DNA of 44,977 bases from Acuticoccus mangrovi (GTDB lineage Bacteria > Pseudomonadota > Alphaproteobacteria > Rhizobiales > Amorphaceae), in the NCBI RefSeq assembly GCF_016411865.1, contig NZ_JAEKJA010000033.1, positions 1 through 44,977 on the forward strand. Direction: 5' to 3'. The first letter of the stretch is position 1. Each line of letters opens with the position of its first letter. Both the position numbers and the translations under genes were made by a program. Below the pieces are notes generated by a model. The model was not told the origin of the DNA. It made no database searches and saw only the letters and a list, made by a program, of their open reading frames with translations. Shown one piece after another: positions 14,735 through 39,676 of the stretch.

Positions 14735-15723
14735 TTCGGCGAGAATTCCGTCGTGTACATCTCGCTGGCCGTGGCCGACGCGGGGATCAGCTCCAGGCGC
14801 TTCAGCGTCGCGACCGTCTCGTCCCAGTCGGCGGCGCTCATGTAGCCGACCGGCTTGCCCTTGCTGTCCTCGGAGTCGAGGAACTTCGCGTGGCTCTCGA
14901 ACATCGCGAGGGTCGTGTCGTAGTCGAGCCGTGCGTCGGGCCGCAGCTCGATGATCGCCTTCACCGCTTCGTCGGCGTGACCGTCGATCGCATACTGATA
15001 GGCGCGCGAGGTCACCTCGACGAAGGCTTTGAGCGCGTCCGCCTTGTCCTCGATCGTGGCGTCGTTGGCGATCAGCCCGAAGTCGAGGATCTTCTGGCCG
15101 AAATCGTAGAAGCTAACCGTCTCGATCTCGTTCTTGCCGGCGAGCAGCCCGAGATAGTAGGGCACCGGGCCGACGGCGGCGTCGCCCTTGCCGCTGAGGA
15201 CGCTCGAGACCTTGGCGGAGGAGTCGACGCCGACCATCTTGACGTCGGAGAGCGACATGCCGCCCGCCGTGAGGAAGCCCTGGAAGACCTGCGCTTCGAT
15301 CGAGCTGGTGTTGTAGAGTATCTCTTTGCCGCGGAAGTCGGCGGGCTCCTTCAACGTGCTGCCCTCGCTGAGGATCAGCCCGTAGATGTTACGGTGCAGG
15401 ATGCTGGCGATCGCCTTCACCGGAACGCCCTTCGCCACCGCGATCGCCATCGCGCCGAGCGAAGTGAAGCCGACATCGGTCTGTTCGGCGCCCACCAGGT
15501 TGATGGTGTTCGCGGTGCCCTTGCCGTCCCGGATGGTCAGGTTGACGCCGGCGTCTTCGTACCAGCCATTCTTGAGCGCCAGATAGAACGGCGCGTGGAA
15601 CCCGTGCGGCGCGAACTCCGTCGTGAGGGTGAGGTCTTCGAGGGAAGAGTCCGCATGTGCCGACCAGCCGAAAACCGAGGCCAGAGCGCAGACGCCAAAC
15701 GCAACCAGGTATTTCGAGTTCAT
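14731..15723 (-). CDS. ABC transporter substrate-binding protein, NMT1/THI5-like
   Basis: A 330-residue periplasmic binding protein. The ATG at 15723 is chosen because a good signal peptide follows directly (MNSKYLVAFGVCALAS, cleavage near SAHA-DSS at about residue 24). The mature part starts LTLTTEFAPHGFHAPFYLALKNGW, then GVNLTIRDGKGTANTINLV and DVGFTSLGAMAIAVAKGVPVKAI, the layout of the NMT1/THI5-like family that binds pyrimidine, riboflavin-like, sulfonate or aromatic ligands. It is the first gene of the five-gene leftward operon, and operator-like repeats lie 80-230 bp upstream. The ligand is unknown, but the downstream VOC and hydrolase genes suggest a degradable organic ring compound. 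Confidence 0.92.
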   Translation of the reverse strand: MNSKYLVAFGVCALASVFGWSAHADSSLEDLTLTTEFAPHGFHAPFYLALKNGWYEDAGVNLTIRDGKGTANTINLVGAEQTDVGFTSLGAMAIAVAKGVPVKAIASILHRNIYGLILSEGSTLKEPADFRGKEILYNTSSIEAQVFQGFLTAGGMSLSDVKMVGVDSSAKVSSVLSGKGDAAVGPVPYYLGLLAGKNEIETVSFYDFGQKILDFGLIANDATIEDKADALKAFVEVTSRAYQYAIDGHADEAVKAIIELRPDARLDYDTTLAMFESHAKFLDSEDSKGKPVGYMSAADWDETVATLKRLELIPASATASEMYTTEFSPK

Positions 15724-15802
15724 CGTGGCTGTATCCTTCCAGGCCAGGCGCGGGCGCGGCATCGAGGTCCGTCCGAGGGACGATCGATTGTCGACGCCGA
15801 TT

Positions 15803-15812
15803 TTGAATACAA
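15803..15812. promoter_or_regulatory. Operator-like decamer, copy 1 (TTGAATACAA)
   Basis: TTGAATACAA lies 80 bp upstream of the binding-protein start. The same decamer occurs in opposite orientation at 15943-15952, near the GntR start. TTGnATnCAA-like near-palindromes are a common form of FCD GntR sites, so the pair probably marks regulator binding on both sides of the divergent promoter region. Confidence 0.6.
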
Positions 15813-15841
15813 AATTGCAGCCACTGGAGACCGGGTCAATC

Positions 15842-15859
15842 ACGATTCGTTCGAATCGT
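15842..15859. promoter_or_regulatory. Inverted repeat in divergent promoter region
   Basis: ACGATTCG-TT-CGAATCGT is a perfect inverted repeat with 8-bp arms, between the two TTGAATACAA decamers. It could be an additional regulator site for the ABC operon or the GntR gene. It is followed by an AT-rich stretch at 15876-15900 that may hold a -10 region. Confidence 0.5.
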
Positions 15860-15942
15860 TCCGCAAACGAGCGCAAATTATAGGCTTATATTGCCTAGAT
15901 TCAGGACAGCGTGGCATCTGGCTTGCAAGTTCGGAGGCAGCC

Positions 15943-15952
15943 TTGTATTCAA
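15943..15952. promoter_or_regulatory. Operator-like decamer, copy 2 (TTGTATTCAA)
   Basis: This is the reverse complement of the decamer at 15803-15812. It ends 27 bp before the GntR start codon, a position fitting autorepression. Confidence 0.6.
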
Positions 15953-15979
15953 TTTTCGCGGCAAGCTAGGAACTTCTCG

Positions 15980-16699
15980 ATGAGCGCGACCGATCCCTCT
16001 GGCACGCTGGGCGACACTGCGGCACGCGGCTTCTATCCTGAGATGGTCTACCAGCGCCTGCGGCTCGACATCCTCAACGCGACGTTCGAGCCCGGCACGA
16101 TCCTCCGGCAGCAGGAGCTCGCCGAGCGCTACCAGGTGAGCCGCGTTCCCCTTCGCGAGGCGATGACCCGGCTCACCGCGGAGGGGATGCTCATCCTGCG
16201 CCCCCGCCGCGGCTACGCCGTGATCTCGCTCGAGCCCGATCAGATCGTGGAGGTGTTCGAGCTCCGCGCGGTCATCGAGGAGCACGCCGGCTACGTCGCC
16301 GCGAGGGCGCGCACCAAGGACGATGTCCGACGTCTCGACGCGCTGATCGTCGCGATGGAGGCGCTCGATCCGGCGTCCGCCCGCTACGTCGACGACTGGT
16401 CGAGCCTCAACTACGATTTCCACGTCTGCCTCGTCGGCTCGACCCGGCGCGAGCGGCTCGCCCGCACCGCCGCCGCGCTCCGAGACACCGTGGAACCCTA
16501 CATCCGGATCGAGAGCCGGCTGACCGGCGACATGAAGCACGCCGAGCGCGAGCACCGGGAGATCGCGCAAGCCTTCAAGGCGGGAGACGCGACCAGCCTG
16601 GCGGCGCTGTGCCGGCAGCACGTGGAGCACACGGCGCAACGCCTGCTGCGCCAGATCAGGCAGCGCTCCGCCGCGACCAGCCCGACCCACCTCTCCTGA
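15980..16699 (+). CDS. GntR family regulator, FCD subfamily
   Basis: A 239-residue regulator with ATG at 15980 (MSATDPSGTLG) and a CTAGGA ribosome site at 15966-15971. The winged helix spans about residues 20-85 (MVYQRLRLDILNATFEPGTIL, then LAERYQVSRVPLREAMTRLTAEGML, and the wing LRPRRGYAVI). The C-terminal FCD domain has the metal or acid-ligand residues in ELRAVIEEHAG, SSLNYDFHVCL and AEREHREIAQAF. Such regulators usually respond to an organic acid intermediate. It is divergent from the ABC operon and 41 bp upstream of the Rid gene, so it probably controls both. Possible binding sites are the TTGAATACAA decamers upstream. Confidence 0.92.
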   Translation: MSATDPSGTLGDTAARGFYPEMVYQRLRLDILNATFEPGTILRQQELAERYQVSRVPLREAMTRLTAEGMLILRPRRGYAVISLEPDQIVEVFELRAVIEEHAGYVAARARTKDDVRRLDALIVAMEALDPASARYVDDWSSLNYDFHVCLVGSTRRERLARTAAALRDTVEPYIRIESRLTGDMKHAEREHREIAQAFKAGDATSLAALCRQHVEHTAQRLLRQIRQRSAATSPTHLS

Positions 16700-17323: not shown

Positions 17324-17398
17324 TGGCTGGGGCGGCTGGATTCGAACCAGCGCATGGCGGTACCAAAAACCGCTGCCTTACCGCTTGGCTACGCCCCA
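17324..17398 (-). tRNA. tRNA-Gln (anticodon TTG)
   Basis: On the minus strand a complete cloverleaf is seen: acceptor TGGGGCG pairing with CGCCCCA, D arm GCC-AAGCGGTAA-GGC, anticodon stem GCGGT/ACCGC with loop TTTTGGT (anticodon TTG), and T arm GCTGG-TTCGAAT-CCAGC. The discriminator is G and the 3' CCA is encoded. Length 75 nt with CCA. U-G opposite the usual first pair (U1-A72 here) is typical of tRNA-Gln. Confidence 0.96.
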
Positions 17399-35119: not shown

Positions 35120-35422
35120 TCACGGCTCCGTCGACCATGCGGCGGTACGCCAGTCGACGGACAAGGTCTCGCGGAAGGCGAAGCGCACGAGGTGGCGCTC
35201 GACGACGTTCATCAGGCGCCCGCATTCGGCGTCGTCGACGGCGTCGACGCGCATATGGAGCACGTCCGGCTCGGCCGCCAGGGAGCAGACGCCGGCGGGG
35301 AAGGCGATGCGGCCGCTCCCCTCCTCCATCTCCACGGGCAGCTTGTGGGCGAAGTGCTTCAGCAGCTGACTGAGATAGCGGGAGGCGTGGGGCGTTGCGA
35401 CGTCGGACTGGGCAGGGTTCAT
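35120..35422 (-). CDS. DUF2218 domain protein
   Basis: A 100-residue soluble protein of the DUF2218 family: YLSQLLKHFAHKLPVEMEEG at the N-terminus and VVERHLVRFAFRETLSVDW at the C-terminus are the family marks, including the conserved His and Arg residues. The family is often encoded beside siderophore receptors and PepSY reductases, pointing to iron metabolism; its biochemical function is unknown. ATG at 35422. It leads a two-gene operon with the PepSY gene. A strong hairpin (35523-35545) lies about 100 bases upstream, probably in the leader. Confidence 0.88.
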   Translation of the reverse strand: MNPAQSDVATPHASRYLSQLLKHFAHKLPVEMEEGSGRIAFPAGVCSLAAEPDVLHMRVDAVDDAECGRLMNVVERHLVRFAFRETLSVDWRTAAWSTEP

Positions 35423-35545: not shown

Positions 35546-35642
35546 TCGTCGAGCCTTCTATGCAGAACAGACAAAGTGCGCTCGAGGGACTTGTCGCGAC
35601 GCGTCACAGCGCGCAACCGCTGACACGCCTTGATACAAAAAA

Positions 35643-35669
35643 CCCTGCCGCCCGAGGTGGGCGGCAGGG
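35643..35669 (-). terminator. Intrinsic terminator, leftward
   Basis: CCCTGCCGCCC (35643-35653), loop GAGGT and GGGCGGCAGGG (35659-35669) form a perfect 11-bp stem. On the minus strand it is followed by TTTTTTG (35636-35642). It should end transcripts from the secreted-protein pair, leaving a 3' region of about 250 bases that contains repeat copy A, or the transcript of a small RNA arising in that repeat. Confidence 0.85.
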
Positions 35670-35735
35670 TCGAGAGAAGCGACCCGGGCGGCGATCGCTT
35701 GCGGGTCGCTCGCGATCCGCGAAGAAGTCGCAGCC

Positions 35736-35853
35736 GACGACGGAGCATGGCATGGCGGGGGCCCTCTCCATGTCGTGCGGGATCGGCAGTCCCCAGCAAC
35801 TGTTCAGGGTTCAGAGCGATGCGAAAGGGGCCCATTCTCGCGAACGGGTCTCC
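35736..35853. repeat. Dispersed direct repeat, copy A
   Basis: From GACGACGGAG to ACGGGTCTCC this segment matches 38304-38425 in the same orientation, with identical blocks such as TGTCGTGCGGGATCGGC and GTTCAGGGTTCAGAGCG and only scattered changes. Similarity may continue a few bases to the right (CTTCCGCACGTCC against CTTCCACAACTCC). The two copies flank the AT-richer secreted-protein pair. On the minus strand both copies read MGPFR-ALNPE-LL-TADPARH. Confidence 0.8.
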
Positions 35854-35911
35854 TTCCGCACGTCCGATGTGACCATCGCGTCACCCACCGGAGAGCGGCC
35901 GAGGTCATGAT

Positions 35912-36916
35912 TCACTCAAGCAATGCGCTCCACTCTTTCTTGAAATAATCCCGAACACATTCCTGCAAATCAGGGCTCTTGTCGGACCACTTATATATCA
36001 TTGCCGCGATGTAGCTTCCGTAATCCTTACCACTTAAGCTATATCGGTAATTCTGCTCCGCGATTTCGGCTCGATTTGCCACATCTTCGCAGGTTTTAGC
36101 CGTGATGACAGCATACCTCTCGAGCGCTTCCGGGGGAGGCGGGCCGAATTTTTCGTTGCGACAAAGAGTTCTTTCGGCGATGTCCAGGCTCATCAGCAAG
36201 GGGTTACCGAAGCCGTACGACACGCTGTTGTAGGGGTCCAGCTCTCGCATGACCGTGGGCATGGCGGCATGGGCTTCCTGACAAGACATGCTGAAAAGCA
36301 AATCTCGTTGTTCGTTTATCTTACGCTGAAGCAGTTCATGAAATGAATTCTCGTAACGTGATAAATCTTGCCGTGACGATTCCGGGCGAAACTCAAAATC
36401 GTCGGGAATGAAGCCCTGTTGTTGCCCGACATAGATCCTAAATTGATTGTTAGCGCTACCTTTTTCAATAAACCAAGGCGCCCCTTCTTGTTTAGATGGC
36501 GATTCTGTATAAAGTATAATATTGATTTGGTCGTTCCAGTCGTACCGGCCGTTTCCCTGAAAGCCTTGCTTCTCCACTTTAACAGGAAACCGCTCGGATT
36601 GGTCGAAATTCTTTTGTGCCCTCTTGAGCGTGCTCGCAACTGCAGTGCGTATATTTGAAAATCCAGTAATGTAATCACCAATATAAAGATTGCCCGCCAT
36701 GGCGGCAGGGCTGTACGCCTGTACCGCTGTGATGCGGGTCGTGGAGTGGTAATGGCCGCCGCCGGCGGCGCGCTTCGTCACGACTTCCACCTGAAGGCCC
36801 AACTCGGGAACGGTGAACACGTTTTTTGTATTGGGTGGAAGCTTGGCCACAGTCTTGATCTGCGCCTCGGCGGAGCCCGCCAGCAGAAGCAGTACAGCAG
36901 TCAGTCTTGCAAGCAT
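35912..36916 (-). CDS. Secreted protein of unknown function with PDZ-like segment
   Basis: A 334-residue exported protein: signal peptide MLARLTAVLLLLAGSAEA (cleavage about residue 18), then a PDZ-like stretch at about 35-115 with LGLQVEVVTKR, the SPAAMAGNLYIGDYITGF carboxylate-loop-like turn and FPVKVEKQG. The C-terminal half is helical and has four cysteines (SMSCQEAH, ERTLCRNE, TAKTCEDV, LQECVRD), perhaps two disulfides. ATG at 36916 has a good GAGAAGG site and overlaps the upstream gene's end by 16 bp. Base composition and codon use are AT-richer than every neighbour, which suggests transfer. I do not recognise a family; the PDZ call is by pattern only. Confidence 0.75.
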   Translation of the reverse strand: MLARLTAVLLLLAGSAEAQIKTVAKLPPNTKNVFTVPELGLQVEVVTKRAAGGGHYHSTTRITAVQAYSPAAMAGNLYIGDYITGFSNIRTAVASTLKRAQKNFDQSERFPVKVEKQGFQGNGRYDWNDQINIILYTESPSKQEGAPWFIEKGSANNQFRIYVGQQQGFIPDDFEFRPESSRQDLSRYENSFHELLQRKINEQRDLLFSMSCQEAHAAMPTVMRELDPYNSVSYGFGNPLLMSLDIAERTLCRNEKFGPPPPEALERYAVITAKTCEDVANRAEIAEQNYRYSLSGKDYGSYIAAMIYKWSDKSPDLQECVRDYFKKEWSALLE

Positions 36917-37722
36917 GCTTTTACCTTCTCGTTCGGGGCGAGAGCGATGGAAAGCAGGAGTCTATCTCGGGTAAAATAGTCTTCCAGATTCTCGATGAAT
37001 CGATCACCTGCCGTCGCCCGGTACGTCTCTTCGAGACAGCCGCAAGCACCCCCTGCCGCACCCTCAACGATACTCGGCAAGGTTTCGGCGCACTTTCTCT
37101 GAAAAATCGAGAGCTTGCTTCGCGCCTGAAGCGGTGGCCGGCCCAGCATGGTCGCATGCAGGTTGTAGGAGAACTGGCGTTCTTCGGGCGTGTCGCAACC
37201 CAGCTCGCTGATCAGACCTTCGATCAGGTTCTGCAAACGGATCTGCCTGGCACGATCGCGATAGATCATCATGTCGCGCAGGTGCGCCGGATCGTTCGCT
37301 CGGGCGAATGCCGCTTCAGCCGAGTCGCGGTATTTCGCACGCACCGAGTAGGATCTGGTTTTGCCTTCCAAATGGTTGATCGTCACACCGTTTCGCTTGG
37401 TCAACTGGTCCACGCGATGGGAAAACGAAAAGATTGGTTCGTTGGATTGACCGATGACACAGTCTTCGGTGTACAGGATCTCAAATCCAAAAGTCAGCAT
37501 GGCCAGCTGATACTTCATCCACTCGACCACGTTGGGATCGAGACGGTCGCGGGCGTCGACACCGTACCCGCGTCCCAAATAGATTTCCCGTGCCATGTCA
37601 TCGTCGATCGACAAACGCTCCTTAGCGCCCGCCTGACTTGAAGGCGATTGCGCATTGACTGGAACGCCTGCCACAAATACCGACAAGATAGAAAGAAAAG
37701 CGTAAGCTCGATTGAGTTTCAT
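36901..37722 (-). CDS. Secreted protein of unknown function
   Basis: A 273-residue exported protein with signal peptide MKLNRAYAFLSILSVFVAGV, cleavage near VNA-QSP (about residue 24). ATG at 37722 follows a GAGG site. The mature protein is mainly helical and charged. The C-terminal third has clustered cysteines (LGCDTPEE, QRKCAETLPS, GGACGCLEETY, KACLQD at the end), suggesting disulfides and periplasmic or extracellular location. It is the first gene of a two-gene leftward operon with the PDZ-like protein and shares its AT-richer composition. No family is recognised; the two proteins may act together since they are overlapping and both exported with Cys-rich C-termini. Confidence 0.72.
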   Translation of the reverse strand: MKLNRAYAFLSILSVFVAGVPVNAQSPSSQAGAKERLSIDDDMAREIYLGRGYGVDARDRLDPNVVEWMKYQLAMLTFGFEILYTEDCVIGQSNEPIFSFSHRVDQLTKRNGVTINHLEGKTRSYSVRAKYRDSAEAAFARANDPAHLRDMMIYRDRARQIRLQNLIEGLISELGCDTPEERQFSYNLHATMLGRPPLQARSKLSIFQRKCAETLPSIVEGAAGGACGCLEETYRATAGDRFIENLEDYFTRDRLLLSIALAPNEKVKACLQD

Positions 37723-37761
37723 TTTGCCTCGATGTGCAATAGTCCTAAAAGATTGGTGATT

Positions 37762-37797
37762 GTTAGAACATTCTGGCAGTAGAATCCAGGTTCTAAC
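37762..37797. promoter_or_regulatory. GTTAGAAC inverted repeat upstream of the secreted-protein operon
   Basis: GTTAGAAC (37762-37769) and GTTCTAAC (37790-37797) are perfect inverted arms, with nested TTCT/AGAA pairs (37771-37774, 37781-37784). It lies 40-75 bp upstream of the start at 37722, where an operator or leader hairpin would be. The same octamer occurs in the motif at 39729. Confidence 0.5.
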
Positions 37798-38303
37798 GCT
37801 ATAAACACTCGGTGATCGGCGGGTTGCTGCGAACGCGATGGCGGCCCGGATTCCGGCAACAGACCGGTTGGTGACAAATCTCTCGAAGCAGCTGTTCTTA
37901 TTGGGAAATCTGTCGACACAGTTACGTCATCCAAAAGCCGTCGGGGCATTTGAACGCCGTGGCGGGCGATCTCTGTGAGTCAGGCGCTGGGCGCTGCGGC
38001 CGTTGGCCGCGCTCCGATCGATCCGCGCTCAGGCCTCGTCGCCGCGGTCTGTGGCGGCGAAACCGGTGACGGCCCGTTCTTCCACGACCGTTGCCCATCC
38101 GGCTTTATCCGACGGCTCGCCGGATCGTCTTCGACGTGATGGGTGATCATGCGGTGTCGGTCGGGCCGATTCCGGGGGCTGTGCCCGAGAGCCGGACTCG
38201 GGAGGGGAGCGTTCGGCCCTCCTCGGCCAGCTGTGCCATGGCGCGGACGAGCCTGCCGCGGATCGGTGCGCGAGAAGGCGAGGCCGGCTTCAGCGAGCGC
38301 CGC

Positions 38304-38425
38304 GACGACGGAGCGTGGCGTGGCGTGGCGTGGGTCCCGTCGATGTCGTGCGGGATCGGCGGTCTCAAGCAACCGTTCAGGGTTCAGAGCGGGGCGAAAG
38401 GGGCCCATGCGCCCCAACGGGCTCC
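38304..38425. repeat. Dispersed direct repeat, copy B
   Basis: This is the second copy of the segment at 35736-35853, same orientation. It differs by scattered substitutions and by an expanded CGTGG tandem. After ACGGGCTCC an extra stretch of about 25 bases precedes the point where weak similarity to copy A resumes (CTTCCACAACTCC near 38449). Confidence 0.8.
38314..38333. repeat. CGTGG tandem, four units
   Basis: Four perfect CGTGG units inside repeat copy B; copy A has only a degenerate CATGG pair at this place. Confidence 0.75.
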
Positions 38426-38500
38426 AGGCCTCTCGGGGGACGGGCTCCCTTCCACAACTCCGAAGCGACCGCCTCGCCAACAGACAGCGGGCGGAGCGCC

Positions 38501-39676
38501 TCACTCCCCCTCGATCAGGGGGATCTTGTTCGCCGGCGGCGTGTTGCGGCTGCGGCGGGAGCGGACGATGCCGTCGATCACCGTCATGCCGACGCCGGGC
38601 AGGTTGCCGAGCTCGATGGACTCCAGGATCGTCTTGCCCGGCGCGTGCTGGGCCTGGTCGAGGAACACGAAGTCCGCCGCCCGGCCCGGCTCGATGATGC
38701 CCACGTCGAGCTCGCGCATGCGGGCGGTGTTGCCGGTGGCGAAGCAGATGGCCGTTTCCGCCTTCACGTTGCCGAGCGCGGCGTAGAGAGCGATCATGCG
38801 CAGGATGCCGAGCGGCTGGACGCCAGAGCCCGCCGGCCCGTCGGTGCCGAGAATGAGGCGGTCGAGCTCGCCGATCTCGCGCGCGGTGTTGAGGGTGAGG
38901 AGGGCGGCCCGCTCGTTGCCGTTGTGCACCACCTCGAGGCCGCGCTTGCAGCTCTCGCAGAGGCAGACGATCTGGTCGTCGGGCAGCGCGGAGTGGCCGC
39001 CGTTGATGTGGCCGATCACGTCGGTGTCGGCTTCGAGCACGACGTCCTTGTCGATGAGGCCGGAGCCTGGGATCGACGGGCCGCCGGTGTGGATGGTCGA
39101 CTGCATGCCGTATTTTCGGGCCCAGGCGACCATTTGGCGGGCGGTGGCCCCGTCCTTCACCGAGCCGAGGCCCACCTCGCCGAGGAGCTTCACGCCGGCC
39201 TCCGCGAGCTCCTTGAAGTCGTGCTCCTCCAGGCCGTGCTCGATGACGGGGGCACCGGCGTGCACCTTCATACCGGAGGGGCGGAGATTCTCGTACCAGC
39301 GCTGCGAGGCGATCGCCATCGCCTTGAGGCCCACGACGTCCTTCGGACGGCCGGGCATGTGCACCTCGCCGGCGGAGATCATGGTGGTGACGCCGCCGTG
39401 GAGGGTGGAATCGATCCAGTGGAGCTGCTGCTGGCGGGGGGTGTAGTCGCCCACCACGGGGTGGACGTGGCTGTCGATGAGACCCGGAGCGAGGGTCACG
39501 CCGTTCGCATCGATGACGAGATCGGCGCCATCGCGGTCGAGGTCGGCGGCACGGCCGACCTGCGTGATGCGACCATTTTCGGCGATCACGCAGTCCGCAT
39601 CGAGGATCGGCTCCTCCATGCGGCCGGAGAGGAGGAGGCCGATATTGTGGACGACGAGCTTCTTCGGATCTGCCAT
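38501..39676 (-). CDS. Amidohydrolase, enamidase-like
   Basis: A 391-residue metal-dependent amidohydrolase with ATG at 39676. The metal-site motifs are LIDSHVHP (H70, H72), KLLGEVGLGS, STIHTGGPSIPGS, VIGHINGGHSALP and LILGTDGPAGSGVQPLGILR. The runs HTGG-SIPGS, GTDGP-GSGVQPLGILR and the C-terminal SRNTPPA resemble, from memory, the enamidase of nicotinate fermentation, which hydrolyses the cyclic enamide 6-oxo-tetrahydronicotinate. A role in opening a lactam or cyclic amide is therefore plausible. No other nicotinate gene is present. It is divergent from fpr, with a pair of matching operator-like motifs between. Confidence 0.87.
   Translation of the reverse strand: MADPKKLVVHNIGLLLSGRMEEPILDADCVIAENGRITQVGRAADLDRDGADLVIDANGVTLAPGLIDSHVHPVVGDYTPRQQQLHWIDSTLHGGVTTMISAGEVHMPGRPKDVVGLKAMAIASQRWYENLRPSGMKVHAGAPVIEHGLEEHDFKELAEAGVKLLGEVGLGSVKDGATARQMVAWARKYGMQSTIHTGGPSIPGSGLIDKDVVLEADTDVIGHINGGHSALPDDQIVCLCESCKRGLEVVHNGNERAALLTLNTAREIGELDRLILGTDGPAGSGVQPLGILRMIALYAALGNVKAETAICFATGNTARMRELDVGIIEPGRAADFVFLDQAQHAPGKTILESIELGNLPGVGMTVIDGIVRSRRSRNTPPANKIPLIEGE

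What the first reader, a model, noticed from the sequence alone, without database searches (positions are those of the whole stretch)
35736..38464. AT-richer secreted-protein islet flanked by ~120-bp direct repeats
Two genes with base composition unlike the rest of the window are bracketed by imperfect direct repeats (35736-35853 and 38304-38425) in the same orientation. The repeats share long identical blocks such as TGTCGTGCGGGATCGGC and GTTCAGGGTTCAGAGCG. No transposase or integrase is present. Direct repeats around foreign DNA fit insertion by recombination between dispersed repeats, or a segment duplicated at integration.
Basis: partly seen in the sequence, partly recalled or inferred. 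Interest (0 to 1): 0.72.

Follow-up and report, generated by a model that had tools for sequence, protein, structure and literature searches.

The report
Orphan gene pair between transposon relics
The two matching stretches around this pair of foreign-looking genes are the worn-down front ends of a common kind of bacterial jumping gene (IS110 family), so the setting looks like an ordinary mobile-DNA scar, although no clear relatives of the two genes turned up in our searches.

Summary
Two direct repeats (81-84% identical) flank two genes with GC3 0.57 and 0.64, against 0.90-0.96 for eight neighbouring genes. The repeat was found nowhere else in the 5.46-Mb assembly.

The repeat is not an anonymous sequence. 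It is the left non-coding end plus first transposase codons of an IS110-family insertion sequence. Near-complete ~1.1-kb copies lie in same-genus genomes, and the same non-coding end lies directly upstream of annotated IS110 transposases on Sphingomonas and Shinella plasmids. The intact transposase aligns nearly end to end with IS621, a bridge-RNA recombinase.

Both window copies are relics. B (38490-38132) has two internal deletions; A (about 35898-35655) keeps a few dozen codons. Neither has a detectable right end. So "no transposase present" holds only for an intact one. Each left end lies 10-13 nt after a stop codon, and the two relics sit at or near both islet/host borders.

A short duplication made at integration is not needed to explain the repeats. 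IS-mediated capture of the islet is possible but unproven: the three same-genus genomes with a close amidohydrolase orthologue carry other DNA beside it, so no empty site was found. The islet proteins gave no convincing relative in any search made.

The parts
38132..38490 (-). Relic B of an IS110-family element: left non-coding end (38490 to about 38318), then two transposase remnants; right end missing
   Evidence: nhmmer to the element profile: positions 2-185 (E 4e-41), 347-407 (9e-6), 673-787 (1e-6) of 1113. tblastn: transposase residues 60-80 and 169-199 in 307-aa numbering.
35655..35898 (-). Relic A of the same element family: left non-coding end with a ~24-nt deletion, then transposase remnants; right end missing. 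The outer 35850-35898 is tentative
   Evidence: nhmmer positions 72-311, 35849-35655, E 4e-36. Outer part: local alignment, shuffle p 0.0035-0.02. tblastn: transposase residues 1-10 and 23-44.
36901..37722 (-). Islet gene 1, 273 aa; signal-peptide-like N-terminus by eye; no family
   Evidence: ORF; GC3 0.64; no Pfam or NCBIfam family, PHROGs only E 0.18 or worse, no PDB sequence
35912..36916 (-). Islet gene 2, 334 aa, overlaps gene 1 by 16 nt; signal-peptide-like N-terminus by eye; weak hint of a PDZ-like domain at residues 20-119
   Evidence: ORF; GC3 0.57; Pfam GRASP55_65 E 0.0083 and PDZ_6 E 0.043, both below cut-off; DegP family E 0.15
37723..38131 (.). Stretch between relic B and islet gene 1, GC rising from 0.41 to about 0.7; no match in same-genus genomes
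   Evidence: Fine GC; DNA search of 61 genomes found only itself and one 37-nt match in another family
35641..35671 (-). Terminator-like hairpin (13 pairs, then T-run) at the inner end of relic A, downstream of the islet genes
   Evidence: Pattern scan; 5 found in the region against 3.3 expected from shuffles, so not more than chance as a count
38501..39676 (-). Host amidohydrolase; its stop codon lies 10 nt from the left end of relic B
   Evidence: Pfam Amidohydro_1, 8.6e-14; distance; 79-88% orthologues in three same-genus genomes
35120..35422 (-). Host-composition DUF2218 gene on the other side of the islet
   Evidence: Pfam PF09981, 3.1e-32; GC3 0.91

Best explanation
The flanking repeats are two relic insertions, in the same orientation, of one IS110-family element whose near-complete copies live in the same genus. 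The part they share is the element's left non-coding end, where this group is expected to encode its bridge RNA, plus the start codon region of the transposase. Shown: homology to near-complete elements, loss of most of the transposase, no detectable right end, position 10-13 nt after stop codons, and no third copy found in the assembly. Inferred: the element lived at this locus as two neighbouring copies, and the AT-rich pair of orphan genes came to lie between them in an unstable, insertion-prone stretch; afterwards both elements decayed by deletion. Whether the element carried the islet in, or merely settled at its edges, is not decided.
For: Seven fetched same-genus stretches carry the repeat, and in most it is followed by an IS110 transposase reading frame or remnant. 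Two intact copies have Pfam PF01548 and PF02371 and align with IS621 over residues 7-305 of 307, E 3.2e-28. The profile of four near-complete copies finds B in three pieces and A in one. In 5 of 8 plasmid records with the non-coding end, the match runs into an annotated IS110 family transposase. The left end is 161-162 nt in the four copies measured, and an RNA fold is supported across 12 sequences: 8 cells changed on both sides, 0 of 500 shuffles as high. The only two copies in 5.46 Mb lie 2.57 kb apart; for two random places that has a chance of about 0.001 (arithmetic: 2 x 2573 / 5457789).
Against: No right end was found for A or B, so neither can be shown to be one complete insertion. The outer end of A is only weakly supported. 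Whether A and B share an origin is unresolved. The assembly is a draft, so further copies could be missing. Tree columns are few (about 100).
Confidence: 0.88

Rival explanations
1. Composite transposon: two IS110 copies in the same orientation moved the islet as one unit, from the left end of B to the right end of A.
For: Same family, same orientation, cargo between, foreign composition, relics at or near both borders. Nesting of two copies occurs in G002.
Against: Right end of A not found. The cargo was not found elsewhere. No empty site seen.
Confidence: 0.12
2. Independent hits: the islet arrived by another route, and the element later inserted once downstream of the amidohydrolase gene and once downstream of the second islet gene.
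For: Both left ends lie 10-13 nt after a stop codon. A and B are cut differently and each carries 14 private changes in the aligned columns. Relatives' copies lie among other mobile or defence genes.
Against: Two independent insertions 2.57 kb apart are unlikely (about 0.001 by the arithmetic above) unless the spot is a hot spot; FastTree joined A and B with 0.82 support.
Confidence: 0.45
3. Tandem or nested pair first, islet second: two neighbouring copies were there, and the foreign pair entered between or inside them by recombination or by a lost mobile element.
For: In G002 a complete copy sits inside the left end of another (L038 7985-9585). Pairing of the only two copies found.
Against: The DNA between relic B and the islet (37723-38131) matched nothing in the genus, so no junction can be read; nothing dates the steps.
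Confidence: 0.35
4. The repeats are a segment duplicated when the islet integrated, or direct-repeat attachment sites of an integrase.
For: Direct orientation and flanking position.
Against: Each repeat is the left end of a known kind of element that occurs without the islet in four other same-genus genomes. No integrase family in the two islet genes; the one tRNA in the window is 18 kb away.
Confidence: 0.03

Closest known systems
IS110 family, IS110 group (IS621; ISCro4)
   Same: Transposase with PF01548 and PF02371, aligned with IS621 and ISCro4 chains in the PDB (E 3.2e-28 and 3.5e-31). Left non-coding end far longer than the right one (161-162 nt against about 20 nt after the stop codon), as passages of PMC11208160 give for the IS110 group. 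Foldable left end with two hairpins.
   Different: The two window copies are relics without an intact transposase or right end; the bridge-RNA role is inferred, not shown.
IS110 family transposases on Sphingomonas sp. NIC1 and Shinella sp. HZN7 plasmids
   Same: 76.7% and 67.5% protein identity over 99% of the query. The same non-coding end, at 90% and 75%, lies directly upstream.
   Different: They lie on plasmids; three Shinella records carry the non-coding end without an annotated transposase under it.

Membership tests
IS110-family insertion sequence (the element) | Transposase with DEDD domain PF01548 and C-terminal PF02371 | tested here: met
   Both domains in the two intact G002 copies; a third, truncated copy has PF01548 only
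IS110-family insertion sequence (the element) | Left non-coding end much longer than right (IS110 group, not IS1111) | tested here: met
   161-162 nt on the left; right tail short in the three copies whose right end was read
IS110-family insertion sequence (the element) | Bridge RNA with target- and donor-binding loops in the left end | tested here: inconclusive
   Fold z -2.39, 2 of 200 shuffles as good. Covariation: 4 pairs with double changes (16 of 500 shuffles as many), 8 such cells (0 of 500), further pair types not above shuffles (208 of 500). An 8-mer of the right tail recurs in the left end, 51 of 5000 shuffles as long. No transcript or binding shown.
IS110-family insertion sequence (the two window copies) | Complete element with open transposase frame and both ends | tested here: not met
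   Only positions 2-787 with two deletions (B) and 72-311 (A) of 1113 recognised; no transposase match in the own genome at E 1e-10
Composite transposon | Two copies of one element around cargo | tested here: met
   Relics A and B, same orientation
Composite transposon | Both outer ends of the unit present | tested here: not met
   Left end of B found; right end of A not found
Composite transposon | Same unit at another place, or an empty site | tested here: inconclusive
   Islet genes not found elsewhere; flank not syntenic in the three relatives
Integrase-type genomic island | Integrase gene and tRNA-linked attachment site | tested here: not met
   No such family in the two islet genes; only tRNA in the window at 17324-17398

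The most novel reading that the evidence does not exclude
A bridge-RNA-guided IS110 element carried two orphan secreted-protein genes as a composite unit. The left ends that outlive their transposase (here, in two other same-genus copies and on Shinella plasmids) would then be more than debris: bridge-RNA-bearing non-autonomous ends that a transposase elsewhere can still use.
Probability: 0.07. Interest if true: 0.6.

Novelty: new member of a known kind. Interest (0 to 1): 0.27.

Why it matters
It turns an unexplained pair of direct repeats into a readable scar: two dead IS110 elements beside a foreign gene pair. It shows that a repeat of about 120 bp can be just the well-conserved left end, with presumed bridge RNA, of an insertion sequence whose transposase has gone, so such repeats should be compared with IS110 left ends before being taken for attachment sites. 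The orphan gene pair itself remains of unknown origin.

Tried and rejected
Rejected: target-site or integration duplication, and integrase attachment sites (see rivals). A known RNA family: Rfam gave only two matches below the curated cut-off, E 0.14 and 0.89.

Led nowhere: structures of the two islet proteins were predicted from single sequences with mean pLDDT 41.3 (334 aa) and 35.3 (273 aa), too poor, so no fold search was made. PDB sequence search of the 334-aa protein gave an artificial design protein (SAKe6AC-LB, whole-sequence E 2e-6, no single stretch passing), which I take for a repeat effect and not a relative. The 273-aa protein gave one marginal match of 69 residues with two stops, E 0.0045, in 385 class genomes. 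Defence-gene models found nothing in the islet proteins. The tree of element copies was unresolved: FastTree joined A and B (0.82), IQ-TREE did not (supports 21-77). In one search I meant to drop one poor copy but a name mismatch kept it in, and one row (G002C4b) carries foreign bases in its first columns. In one search only 14 candidates per genome were scored, so weaker copies may be missed. Searches of genomes were samples of the order, class and phylum, not all of them.

Full report
What was checked. The two repeats exist at the stated places. They match at 84% over an ungapped 104 nt and 81% with gaps, E 4.2e-27, and are the only two matches in the own assembly of 5,457,789 bases. The two genes between them have GC 0.51 and 0.55 and GC3 0.57 and 0.64, against GC3 0.90-0.96 in eight neighbouring genes.

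What the repeat is. A DNA search of 61 genomes (own and 60 relatives) found matches in 8: five of the eight same-genus genomes, with 10 copies in all (G000 two, G002 four, G003 one, G005 two, G007 one), and three genomes of other families with a short piece each. Read on the strand opposite to the window's, the repeat runs into a start codon. In the fetched stretches a reading frame follows that carries Pfam PF01548 and PF02371 in both intact copies tested and aligns with IS621 and ISCro4 transposase chains in the PDB. Complete copies measure about 1.1 kb. A search for the transposase in 21 genomes found two full-length open copies, both in G002, and none in the own genome at E 1e-10. In named plasmids the non-coding end occurs in 8 records; in 5 of these the match runs into an annotated IS110 family transposase and in 3 it does not.

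The window copies. A profile of four near-complete copies (1113 positions) finds relic B at 38490-38132 as positions 2-185, 347-407 and 673-787, and relic A at 35849-35655 as positions 72-311. The pieces of B overlap by 4 nt at each deletion, which suggests deletion at short matches (inference). The left end of A probably continues to about 35898 with a deletion of about 24 nt, but that alignment is weak (p 0.0035-0.02). No right end was seen for either: the profile's last 325 positions match the window only at chance level (E 8.9 or worse). Left end B lies 10 nt after the amidohydrolase stop codon and left end A, if at 35898, 13 nt after the stop codon of the 334-aa gene. In the seven same-genus loci compared, the nearest same-strand stop codon lies 46 to 458 nt off in five; one has none within reach and one only at 555 nt.

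The left end as a presumed bridge RNA. It is 161-162 nt long in the four copies measured. One copy folds better than shuffles (z -2.39; 2 of 200 as good). With eight sequences the alignment gave almost no covariation (term -0.01). With 12 sequences, five of them from plasmids, 96.7% of cells pair, 8 cells change on both sides (0 of 500 shuffles as high) and 4 pairs do (16 of 500), while the number of further pair types is not above shuffles (208 of 500); slid versions pair at 30-52%. An 8-mer of the right tail recurs in the left end (51 of 5000 shuffles as long), as a donor guide should. By eye, without a control, 6 of the 8 copies with an intact left end have CG, then C or T, then CCC just outside it, similar to CCCGTCCCC in the left end itself. 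What is known of bridge RNAs here comes from passages of PMC11208160; PMC11208158 was seen in a listing only.

Synteny. Orthologues of the amidohydrolase at 79-88% exist in G004, G006 and G007, followed by the same FNR-like gene, but none of the window's genes on the other side of the islet, nor the islet genes, matched in the 15-16 kb fetched. DUF2218 relatives in the genus are 40-48% identical and elsewhere. PepSY relatives of 63-66% in G005 and G006 lie on other contigs.

The islet proteins. The 334-aa protein found only itself in 61 relatives, 397 genomes of the order and 398 of the phylum. The 273-aa protein found only itself in 61 relatives, and in 385 of the class itself plus one marginal piece. 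Pattern scans of genome contigs and viral contigs and protein searches of plasmids and phages gave none. Pfam, NCBIfam and PHROGs gave nothing above their cut-offs; the sub-threshold matches of the 334-aa protein to GRASP55_65 and PDZ_6 and DegP all cover residues 20-119 and hint at a PDZ-like domain. That both proteins are secreted is judged by eye from the N-termini; no predictor was run.

Reading. The repeats are two IS110-family relics. The pairing of the only two copies is unlikely by chance (about 0.001 for two random places), so they are linked by history: a neighbouring pair, a hot spot, or a carried unit. The evidence does not choose. A nested pair in G002 shows that copies of this element do land in each other. 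The islet's origin remains unknown. That the setting is a mobile-DNA scar is well supported; that the element moved the islet is not.

Noticed in passing
L038:7985-9585 (G002 contig 4): A complete IS110-family copy sits inside the left end of a second, internally deleted copy, at a run of C in its presumed target-loop region: the element inserted into its own kind.
   Followed up: partly
L080:1198-1504 and L082:1174-1465 (Shinella plasmids): Two left ends with about 48 transposase codons and nothing after; their flanks look alike by eye, so probably one old event on related plasmids.
   Followed up: partly
L041:7114-7323 (G003): A left-end-only copy lies beside SspC and SspD genes of a DNA phosphorothioation defence system, with a sub-threshold DndB match on the other side.
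   Followed up: partly
L039, L042, L043, L044 (G002, G005, G007): Other copies lie next to transposases of other families or a serine recombinase, and the G002 pair in L038 next to a replication initiator.
   Followed up: partly
window 15001-16000: A second, milder drop in GC (0.61), not examined.
   Followed up: no
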